This document shows, piece after piece, positions 62,368 to 63,543 of a DNA stretch of 64,000 nucleotides. The notes under the pieces were generated by a model. It did not search any database. It was given only the letters and a program-made list of their open reading frames with translations, and had not been told where the DNA came from. Each line of letters opens with the position of its first letter. Positions within the stretch are counted from its first letter, which is position 1. The stretch is from NCBI RefSeq assembly GCF_030817355.1, contig NZ_JAUSZH010000001.1, positions 6,324,501-6,388,500 of the forward strand, read 5' to 3'. The translations under genes were made by a program, and so were the position numbers. This DNA comes from Streptomyces sp. V1I1 (GTDB taxonomy: Bacteria; Actinomycetota; Actinomycetes; Streptomycetales; Streptomycetaceae).

Positions 62368-62412
62368 ATAATCGTTCGAGCGGGGGTCGCAGGTCTTGCT
62401 AGCTTGATCGAC

Positions 62413-63144
62413 GTGGCGAAACTCAATCAGATCATCGCAGTCGAGAAAGGCGTCAAGTCCAAGGCGCACCAGGACCTGACGGCGGCCCATCACGGGCTGC
62501 AGAAGCCTGCGCTGCTGGCCGGAATCTCGCGTACGTACCAGCCCAAGGACGAGGAGGGCGAGCAGCTGCCGCCCGAGTCCACGCGGGTCCAGGTCAAGGC
62601 CGAGGACGTGCTGCGCGAGACCGCGAAGACGCTGACCCGGCTGTTCGACGTGACCGCCACCAAGGACTGGGCCAACTGCGCCGCACGCGCCGATGTGACG
62701 GTGGACGGGCGCGTCCTGGTGAGCGAGGTGCCGGTGGCGTATCTCCTCTTCCTCGAGAAGCAGTTGACGGACATCAACACCTTTGTGCGCAAGCTCCCGG
62801 TGCTCGATGCCTCGGAGTCCTGGACGCAGGACCCGTCGACCGACGCGTGGAAGACCGAGTCGGTACGCACTCTCCGTACGAAGAAGGTCCCCCGCAATCA
62901 TGTGAAGGCGGAGGCGACCGAGAAGCACCCGGCGCAGGTCGAGGTGTACTACGAGGACATTCCTGTCGGTTACTGGACGACCGTGAAGTTCTCCGGTGCG
63001 CTGCCGGCCCGGCGGGTGAACGAGCTGCTGGAGCGGGTGGAGAAGCTGCAGCAGGCTGTGAAGTTCGCCCGCGAGGAGGCGAATGGCGCGGAGGTCACCG
63101 ACCAGCGGGTGGGTGACGCCGTATTTGGCTACCTGTTCGGGTAG
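62413..63144 (+). CDS. conserved protein of unknown function, upstream of permuted tRNA-like RNAs
   Basis: 243 aa. MAKLNQIIAVEKGVKSKAHQ is a common start for a family found in actinobacteria and actinophages (I recall it as DUF7873). The rest is mostly helical and charged (LRETAKTLTRLFDVTATKDWANCAARADVTVDG, LEKQLTDINTFVRKLPVL, VEVYYEDIPVGYWTTVKFSGALPARRVNELLERVEKLQ). No catalytic motif is visible and there is no signal peptide. GTG 62413 lacks a ribosome site and follows TAGCTT (62400-62405) by 7 bases, so a leaderless transcript is possible. A terminator and two permuted tRNA-like RNAs follow it, suggesting a linked function. Confidence 0.75.
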   Translation: MAKLNQIIAVEKGVKSKAHQDLTAAHHGLQKPALLAGISRTYQPKDEEGEQLPPESTRVQVKAEDVLRETAKTLTRLFDVTATKDWANCAARADVTVDGRVLVSEVPVAYLLFLEKQLTDINTFVRKLPVLDASESWTQDPSTDAWKTESVRTLRTKKVPRNHVKAEATEKHPAQVEVYYEDIPVGYWTTVKFSGALPARRVNELLERVEKLQQAVKFAREEANGAEVTDQRVGDAVFGYLFG

Positions 63145-63155
63145 CCTCAAAGATT

Positions 63156-63181
63156 CCCCGTCCGCCGTCGTGCGGACGGGG
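63156..63181 (+). terminator. terminator after the 62413 gene
   Basis: A 9-bp perfect stem (CCCCGTCCG with CGGACGGGG) and 8-base loop begin 12 bases after the stop. Confidence 0.75.
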
Positions 63182-63214
63182 TGCGCGAGGAGCGCAAGCT
63201 GAAACTGAAGCTTG

Positions 63215-63325
63215 TCGTGACTGAGCGGTTCCAGTGGAGGTTCGAGTCCTCCCCGCGGCACTTTCCGTACGTACGGGCCGCGGTAGCCCAACTCGGCAGA
63301 GGCAGACCGCGATCAATCTCAGACT
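63215..63325 (+). ncRNA. circularly permuted tRNA-like RNA 1 (YrlA-like)
   Basis: The order is: anticodon-stem 3' strand CGGTT (63226-63230), variable loop CCAGT, T arm GGAGG-TTCGAGT-CCTCC (63236-63252), 3' acceptor strand CCGCGGC (63253-63259), a 17-base cap, 5' acceptor strand GCCGCGG (63277-63283), TA, D arm GCCCAACTCGGCAGAGGC, A, and anticodon-stem 5' strand GACCG (63305-63309). The two acceptor strands form 7 perfect pairs and the anticodon strands 5 (one G-U). Outside, CTGAG (63221-63225) pairs with CTCAG (63318-63322). Position 33 would be G rather than T, so decoding is unlikely. Bacterial Y RNAs of the YrlA type have this topology, as I recall. Confidence 0.7.
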
Positions 63326-63374
63326 ATTGCTCCAGACTCAGCATTCGCCGCCGATCGCCGGATCGACCGGGCCC

Positions 63375-63475
63375 GGGCCCTGGTGCGTCGAAATGCCGGT
63401 TCAAGTCCGGCCCGCGCAGCTCGATGTGCGGTGGTCCAAAGGCAGGACGCGGCGACATAACGACTGACTCGGGTT
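63375..63475 (+). ncRNA. circularly permuted tRNA-like RNA 2 (YrlA-like)
   Basis: A second permuted unit has the same order: CGTCG (63386-63390), T arm GCCGG-TTCAAGT-CCGGC (63395-63411), 3' acceptor strand CCGCGCA (63412-63418), a 6-base cap GCTCGA, 5' acceptor strand TGTGCGG (63425-63431), TG, D arm GTCC-AAAGGCA-GGAC (63434-63448), G, and CGGCG (63450-63454). The acceptor stem has 7 pairs (one G-U) and the anticodon stem 5 (one G-U). An outer helix pairs CCCTGGT (63378-63384) with ACTCGGG (63467-63473), one mismatch. A cap of only 6 bases leaves little room for tRNA end processing, favouring a closed tRNA mimic. Confidence 0.7.
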
Positions 63476-63512
63476 CTCAAGCGTGCCGGTGTGCGACATG
63501 GGCGGCATCACA

Positions 63513-63543
63513 GGGCTCGGGGGCCGGCTACGCCCCCGGGCCC
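63513..63543. terminator. terminator after the permuted RNAs
   Basis: A 12-bp stem with one G-U pair (63513-63524 with 63532-63543) closes on a 7-base loop. It would end the transcript of the two tRNA-like RNAs before the cupin gene. Confidence 0.8.

What the first reader, a model, noticed from the sequence alone, without database searches (positions are those of the whole stretch)
63215..63475. Two tandem circularly permuted tRNA-like RNAs
In each of two adjacent units the T arm and 3' acceptor strand lie upstream of the 5' acceptor strand and D arm, joined by a short cap (17 or 6 bases). Both acceptor stems (7 pairs) and both anticodon-equivalent stems (5 pairs) form, while pairing a 5' half with the next 3' half fails, so these are permuted, not ordinary, tRNA genes. 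Neither has T33 in the loop. Tandem arrangement and ends at the anticodon position fit YrlA-like Y RNAs, which mimic tRNA in bacteria; permuted decoding tRNAs are not known in bacteria to my knowledge. No Ro60 (TROVE) gene is in the window.
Basis: partly seen in the sequence, partly recalled or inferred. Interest (0 to 1): 0.92.

Follow-up and report, generated by a model that had tools for sequence, protein, structure and literature searches.

The report
Two-headed tRNA-mimic RNA beside DUF7873
Next to a gene of unknown function, Streptomyces and many phages carry an unannotated RNA of about 400 bases with up to two tRNA look-alike heads whose halves are in swapped order, which looks like a new Ro60-free relative of bacterial Y RNAs.

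Summary
At 63236-63303 and 63395-63448 lie two circularly permuted tRNA-like units: T arm and 3' acceptor strand first, then a 17- or 6-nt cap, then 5' acceptor strand and D arm, with 7/7 acceptor pairs each. They are two heads of ONE structured RNA (about 63156-63543) directly 3' of a DUF7873 gene (62404-63144). Each head sits on a long rod.

The architecture is conserved with many compensatory changes in Streptomyces, Nonomuraea and phages. Among 199 same-genus genomes, strong RNA hits (>=59.8 bits) occur in exactly the 93 with DUF7873. Of the 80 best IMG/VR relatives of DUF7873, 77 have a hit to the RNA model; in one further phage contig the RNA lies on the opposite strand.

It resembles YrlA Y RNA in kind, but this genome has no TROVE/Ro60 match, TROVE and DUF7873 occur independently in the genus, an arm shared by four Ro60-linked Y RNA loci is absent, and Rfam's cut-off is not reached.

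Best reading: a Ro60-independent, twin-headed, Y-RNA-like tRNA mimic with DUF7873 as protein partner. Partnership, transcription and the factor recruited are inferred, not shown.

The parts
62404..63144 (+). DUF7873 gene (PF25283), proposed protein partner
   Evidence: Pfam E 1.6e-121; RNA model hits >=59.8 bits in 93/93 genomes with it, 0/106 without; AlphaFold pLDDT 93.1, no fold match at E <= 0.001
63156..63195 (+). two short hairpins at the 5' end of the RNA, just after the stop codon
   Evidence: read by eye; similar hairpins at this place in Streptomyces and actinophage relatives
63198..63224 (+). rod 1, 5' strand (YUSA about every 6 nt)
   Evidence: pairs with 63311-63342; own 21.8 pairs versus 11.7 with swapped partners, p 3e-10 over 50 sequences; fold
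63225..63310 (+). head 1: permuted tRNA-like unit with anticodon-stem equivalent
   Evidence: R1 39.2 bits; YrlA 23 bits, cut-off 69
63311..63342 (+). rod 1, 3' strand
63356..63385 (+). rod 2, 5' strand with conserved AUCGACC
   Evidence: helices 2 and 3 (95.3% and 84.4% of cells paired; all 13 pairs show double changes)
63386..63454 (+). head 2: permuted tRNA-like unit with anticodon-stem equivalent
   Evidence: inside R1 match 63347-63506, 120.4 bits, E 1.6e-32 (this locus is one of the 38 model rows)
63455..63491 (+). rod 2, 3' strand with conserved CUUAAACG (CUCAAGCG here)
63513..63543 (+). G+C-rich 3' hairpin, loop GGCUACG (GGAUAYG in many phages); possible end of the RNA
   Evidence: by eye; no terminator called

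Best explanation
A structured non-coding RNA of about 390 nt that belongs with DUF7873. SHOWN by comparison: up to two permuted tRNA-like heads (elbow plus 7-bp acceptor stem, no anticodon loop), each on a long irregular rod, with a conserved internal loop (AUCGACC / CUUAAACG), present or absent together with DUF7873 in the genus and next to it in phages. INFERRED: it is an RNA in its own right; DUF7873 binds the rods and core; and the RNP holds out tRNA elbows and acceptor ends as bait for enzymes that grip tRNA without reading the anticodon, RNase P first (C74, often CCA, usually G1-C72, and U at -1 in phage units), either to recruit or to occupy them. In phages this would steer tRNA maturation or decay, or block a host factor that attacks tRNA. 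It works like a bacterial Y RNA but with another protein.
For: Permuted units far above shuffles; 112 distinct acceptor stems, swapped partners pair fully in 1.5%. Covariation: 36 of 37 pairs with double changes, 84.1% of cells paired versus 61.3% shuffled; helices 2 and 3 were not used to choose the sequences. Rods 1 and 2. Linkage 93/93 and 0/106; 80 of 80 named Streptomyces loci, 77 of 80 IMG/VR loci, 16 of 16 of an earlier IMG/VR set that largely overlaps. In L141 the RNA is on the opposite strand, 1.2 kb 3' of DUF7873, so it need not be part of the DUF7873 mRNA. C74 kept in 52/56 and 53/55 phage units 1 and 2, and 65/79 and 60/60 cell units; CCA in 27/56 and 24/55 phage units; U(-1) in 31/56 and 39/55. 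In 32 contigs whose called tRNA genes mostly lack CCA, 27 of 53 units have it.
Against: No transcript, binding or cleavage data. CCA is in 19 of 79 cell units 1 and 0 of 60 cell units 2, and U(-1) is not favoured in cells (18/79, 11/60), so the RNase P argument rests on phages. Caps as short as 4 nt may hinder cleavage. DUF7873 has no fold match at E <= 0.001, so RNA binding rests on linkage and on a conserved basic stretch (residues 158-167). No dominant neighbour gene. L162, L163 and L216 have DUF7873 without an R1 hit in the fetched DNA, and phage L047 only a unit found by pattern.
Confidence: 0.58

Rival explanations
1. Ordinary YrlA-type Y RNAs that serve Ro60, here a divergent pair.
For: Same permuted tRNA-like domain; YrlA model aligns over 63217-63329; four Ro60-like (TROVE) loci of the genus also carry two tandem permuted units.
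Against: No TROVE match in the genome; TROVE and DUF7873 independent in 199 genomes (48 shared of 94 and 93, Fisher p 0.26; the TROVE matches cover only about 60 of 442 model positions); the arm motif present twice in each of those four loci is in none of the other 233 loci nor in the window (motif chosen by eye from those four); YrlA 23 bits against cut-off 69, although those four loci also reach only 38-41.
Confidence: 0.1
2. Cis-acting 3' element of the DUF7873 mRNA: the heads sense tRNA-handling factors and tune DUF7873 expression.
For: Same strand, 17-342 nt 3' of the DUF7873 match (median 200) in all 93 genomes; no promoter called between them (a weak test in Streptomyces).
Against: On the opposite strand in L141; about 400 nt of other sequence lie between in L143; one genome keeps an intact RNA (121 bits) beside an 85-residue DUF7873 match.
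Confidence: 0.1
3. A multi-piece permuted tmRNA relative (cut at the caps by RNase P, as in two-piece tmRNA).
For: Same permutation at the acceptor end; RNase P-like determinants in phages; the period-6 pattern of rod 1 looks like alternating codons.
Against: G3-U70, the alanine signal (recalled), in at most one unit in each class; rod 1 spacings of 7 (12 of 98) break a frame and the strands pair with each other; the tmRNA model does not hit these RNAs in 10 loci, while one of these phages has a separate tmRNA.
Confidence: 0.05
4. Permuted tRNA genes that yield decoding tRNAs after splicing.
For: Gene order as in algal and archaeal permuted tRNAs (PMC3978253, passages).
Against: No anticodon loop; strands enter long rods.
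Confidence: 0.03
5. Chance pairing in scattered tRNA debris.
For: YrlA and R1 models also score tandem tRNA genes; weak single-sequence folding.
Against: Shuffle, swap and covariation controls.
Confidence: 0.01

Closest known systems
YrlA / bacterial Y RNA (RF02553)
   Same: Permuted tRNA-like head with T arm, acceptor and D arm; tandem heads; stem in place of the anticodon loop
   Different: Linked protein (DUF7873, not Ro60), no Ro-type arm motif, up to two heads in one RNA with two rods and another conserved core, Rfam cut-off not reached
Two-piece (permuted) tmRNA
   Same: T arm and 3' acceptor strand precede the 5' strand; possible RNase P cut at the cap
   Different: Two heads, no tag frame recognised, no G3-U70, no tmRNA model hit
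Permuted tRNA genes of algae and archaea
   Same: Gene order and short intervening cap
   Different: No anticodon loop
tRNA gene arrays of large phages
   Same: Several phage copies lie among or near them
   Different: Not annotated, permuted, tied to DUF7873

Membership tests
YrlA (RF02553) | Reaches Rfam cut-off of 69 bits | tested here: not met
   23 bits. Weak test: four Ro60-linked loci of the genus reach 38-41 and tandem tRNA genes 38-42
YrlA (RF02553) | Permuted tRNA-like domain | tested here: met
YrlA (RF02553) | Ro60/Rsr partner gene in the genome | tested here: not met
   none; independent in genus
YrlA (RF02553) | Arm shared by Ro60-linked Y RNAs of the genus | tested here: not met
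   motif taken by eye from four TROVE loci
YrlA (RF02553) | Binds Ro60 or tethers PNPase | not testable with these tools
   needs protein
tmRNA | tmRNA covariance model hit at gathering | tested here: not met
   none in window nor in the RNA regions of 10 loci
tmRNA | G3-U70 in the acceptor stem (recalled) | tested here: not met
   1/56, 1/55, 0/79, 0/60
Decoding tRNA (permuted) | Closed anticodon arm with U33 | tested here: not met
   strands run into rods
DUF7873-linked RNA (proposed here) | Unit 2 plus rod 2 core beside DUF7873 | tested here: met
   R1 120.4 bits (the locus is one of 38 model rows)

The most novel reading that the evidence does not exclude
Founder of a Ro60-independent class of tRNA-mimic RNPs, spread by large phages: a two-headed RNA, opened at its caps by RNase P into a multi-piece particle with mature tRNA-like ends, that lets DUF7873 commandeer or shield the tRNA machinery during infection, and that Streptomyces has taken over for its own use.
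Probability: 0.35. Interest if true: 0.93.

Novelty: new variant of a known kind. Interest (0 to 1): 0.82.

Why it matters
Bacterial Y RNAs are known as Ro60 partners, and what their tRNA-like heads do is open (from memory and the passages). A linked RNA and protein that keep the heads but drop Ro60 separates the two questions. It gives a lead for an unknown protein family found in 73 phage records, and shows that a large structured RNA can sit unannotated beside phage tRNA arrays and in 93 of 199 sampled genomes of the genus.

Tried and rejected
Coding reading of the period-6 (YUSA) segments: they translate as alternating K/R and L/F, but spacings of 7 occur, high-GC Streptomyces keeps AGA/AAA (by eye), and the segments pair with each other; rejected. 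Correlation of unit CCA with neighbouring tRNA genes' CCA: only 4 contigs had CCA-rich tRNA genes, too few; some tRNA calls fall inside the RNA itself (26 of 80 viral loci), so those counts are rough. In fixed register the anticodon-stem equivalents pair 5/5 in only 14 of 50 (unit 1) and 22 of 50 (unit 2), against 2.1% and 3.7% for swapped partners, and column-wise only 41.7% of cells pair in helix 4; the register shifts between sequences. Mutual information gave no signal for rod 1, and 73 of its top 110 column pairs were not pairing columns; rod 1 showed only by per-sequence folding, where 12 of 50 had fewer than 15 pairs and the energy gain over swapped partners was modest (-25.5 against -22.8, p 0.006). 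Neighbour genes of viral loci, 100 of 152 ORFs scanned, first 25 of 42 families shown: Terminase_6C 5, Terminase_6N 4, Band_7 2, 2'-5' RNA ligase 2, PNKP 1; no dominant partner. A first regex count of unit 1 (22 of 80) was faulty; the next gave 61 of 80, and L060 proved to have unit 1 too, so 62 of 80. tRNA proximity was inflated by false calls inside the RNA; corrected to 37 of 80 viral loci with a tRNA gene outside it. Foldseek: nothing at E <= 0.001; PDB sequence search one hit at E 0.38; PHROGs, NCBIfam, PADLOC none.

Ten paper searches showed no paper on DUF7873 (0 hits) and, judged from the listings only, none on this RNA. The library lacks most subscription papers.

Full report
OBSERVATION. 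Both units are there with the geometry claimed; coordinates are in the parts list. ARAGORN and Rfam at gathering threshold find only a tRNA-Leu at 18.7 kb in the window. The permissive Rfam scan gives YrlA at 63217-63329 with 23 bits, E 0.038 for 1201 bases. That score is not diagnostic: the YrlA model gives 40.7 bits to two ordinary tandem tRNA-Asn genes of the same genome and 38-42 bits to such pairs in two relatives. So comparison, not the score, has to decide.

SURROUNDINGS. The genus is taken to be Streptomyces: the 80 named loci kept (of 537 relatives) are all Streptomyces. The RNA starts a few bases after the stop codon of a 246-aa DUF7873 protein. DUF7873 occurs in 93 of 199 same-genus genomes, in 7 of 396 genomes sampled over the phylum, all 7 of this genus, in 4 plasmid records, one of them Nonomuraea, and in 73 phage records named after Vibrio, Gordonia, Rhizobium, Klebsiella, Serratia, Arthrobacter, Pseudanabaena, Rhodococcus and Microcoleus. 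Of eight phage loci read, five lie among annotated tRNA genes, one has six tRNA genes 3-5 kb downstream, one has two just 3', one has none in 10 kb. All eight have one or two permuted units after DUF7873, in stretches without annotation apart from small hypothetical CDSs in L043 and L047. A profile scan of IMG/VR found 403 relatives, of which the best 80 were kept; these 80 include near-identical contigs.

CHANCE CONTROL. A detector (5/5 T stem with NUCRA loop, 7/7 acceptor stem in permuted order, U8, D stem of at least 3) found units in 68 of 80 viral loci (39 with two or more) and 139 of 141 other loci (100 with two or more). Totals were 107 and 239 against 0.0 and 0.05 per shuffled set; reverse strand 0 and 0; ordinary order 10 and 4. 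There were 112 distinct acceptor stems, and exchanged partners pair fully in 1.5%. The 141 include near-identical Streptomyces and contigs shared with the 80. Caps run from 4 nt to 185 nt in L155, where the acceptor strands of unit 2 still pair 7/7; three other long calls (L158, L182, L189) look like false pairings.

ARCHITECTURE. In 50 distinct sequences with two units, mutual information picks out the T, D and acceptor stems (part of the selection) and also a long helix between the stretches before and after unit 2 (not part of the selection); 73 of the top 110 column pairs were not pairing columns. In 38 aligned rows, 36 of 37 pairs have changes on both sides, and 84.1% of cells pair against 61.3% in shuffles and 38.6-45.7% when slid. 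The structure was written from one row (L006). One of the 38 rows (L186) seems to be a unit 1 by its context; it was not removed. Rod 1 is an irregular helix with mismatches about every 6 nt: 21.8 inter-strand pairs against 11.7 with exchanged partners, p 3e-10; rod 2 21.7 against 11.4, p 7e-17. A YUSA element recurs in rod 1 (2.9 per sequence against 0.58 shuffled; spacing 6 in 73 of 98). Unit 1 is dispensable: present in 62 of 80 named Streptomyces loci, not found in 18; in several of these, and in some phages, a plain hairpin stands there (by eye). Unit 2 with its core is nearly constant.

LINKAGE. A covariance model of unit 2 plus core (R1) hits the window at 63347-63506 with 120.4 bits (this locus is in the model). 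Over the same 199 genomes 191 have some match at E 0.01, but hits of at least 59.8 bits fall in exactly the 93 with DUF7873 and none of the 106 without, all same strand, 17-342 nt 3'. The threshold was set after seeing the scores; 90 of the 93 are at 83.8 bits or more, and the best hit elsewhere is 58.0. The elsewhere hits I read (six places, picked) are four Ro60-linked Y RNAs and two tandem tRNA-Asn pairs. R1 hits 80 of 80 named Streptomyces loci (4 of them model rows). Of 80 IMG/VR loci (25 of them model rows), 70 have a full or nearly full-length hit of at least 58.7 bits and 77 any hit at E 0.001; L162, L163 and L216 have none. Of ten other loci, seven have a full-length hit, two a partial one, and the Vibrio phage L047 none. 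All 16 loci of the first IMG/VR scan have a hit; in L141 both units lie on the opposite strand, 1.2 kb 3' of DUF7873, which speaks for an RNA in its own right.

RELATION TO Y RNA. TROVE matches (short, about 60 of 442 positions, over the cut-off) are in 94 of 199 genomes; 48 of these have DUF7873, Fisher p 0.26. Four TROVE loci, chosen because R1 hits lay nearby, each carry two tandem RNAs with the same permuted head and a shared arm motif, absent from the other 233 loci and from the window. So the head is of the Y RNA kind, while partner and body differ. The published work on YrlA (Chen 2014, Wang 2018) was not held; I know it from memory and from passages in PMC7790460, PMC11472068 and PMC12282133. 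[quoted passage not shown]

END CHEMISTRY. In distinct units of 80 IMG/VR plus 8 named phage loci, and of cellular loci (units 1 and 2 told apart by a motif, so some may be misfiled), C74 is kept in 52/56 and 53/55 phage units 1 and 2, and 65/79 and 60/60 cell units. CCA: 27/56, 24/55, 19/79, 0/60. U at -1: 31/56, 39/55, 18/79, 11/60. G1-C72: 43/56, 51/55, 76/79, 23/60. These are RNase P determinants (recalled), so in phages a cut at the cap, as described for permuted pre-tRNA, is plausible (passages of PMC3978253; that two-piece tmRNA is cut so is recalled). The acceptor sequence itself is free, which argues against one synthetase and for a general tRNA-shape binder.

DUF7873. AlphaFold2 gives pLDDT 93.1, pTM 0.77, four long helices (7-32, 66-91, 111-129, 202-227) and a long beta hairpin (154-169, 178-197). 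Foldseek finds nothing at E <= 0.001 in PDB or BFVD; one phage protein (A0A7M1RW91) has TM 0.45/0.59 at E 0.025. A conserved basic stretch RTKKVPRNHV (158-167; K161 invariant in A2) lies in that hairpin; RNA binding by it is inference.

VERDICT. A real, conserved RNA family that I found described nowhere in the searches named. Anatomy and linkage are strong; the work it does is not shown. My commitment is to a Y-RNA-like bait or scaffold for tRNA-handling enzymes with DUF7873 as partner.

Noticed in passing
L232-L235 (four same-genus TROVE loci): Ro60-like genes carry two tandem permuted Y RNAs just upstream that Rfam's YrlA model scores at 41.3 bits or less (cut-off 69), so Rfam overlooks them.
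   Followed up: partly
63513-63543 and phage relatives: The 3' hairpin keeps a loop GGAUAYG in distant phages (by eye), more than a plain terminator needs.
   Followed up: no
G184:C1:5682524-5682953: An RNA hit of 121 bits beside an 85-residue DUF7873 match: the RNA may outlive the protein gene for a time.
   Followed up: no
L141:4941-5241 (minus strand): The RNA faces DUF7873 from the opposite strand in this phage contig.
   Followed up: partly
L143: About 400 nt that look coding lie between DUF7873 and the RNA.
   Followed up: no
L041:3063-3591: Gordonia phage Phendrix has a tmRNA hit (89 bits) in the same tRNA array.
   Followed up: no
BFVD A0A7M1RW91, uncultured phage cr118_1: Possible distant structural relative of DUF7873 (TM 0.45/0.59, E 0.025).
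   Followed up: no
L049 (S. flavofungini plasmid): Locus on a plasmid with IS630 and IS5 family transposase genes next to it, a hint of mobility.
   Followed up: no
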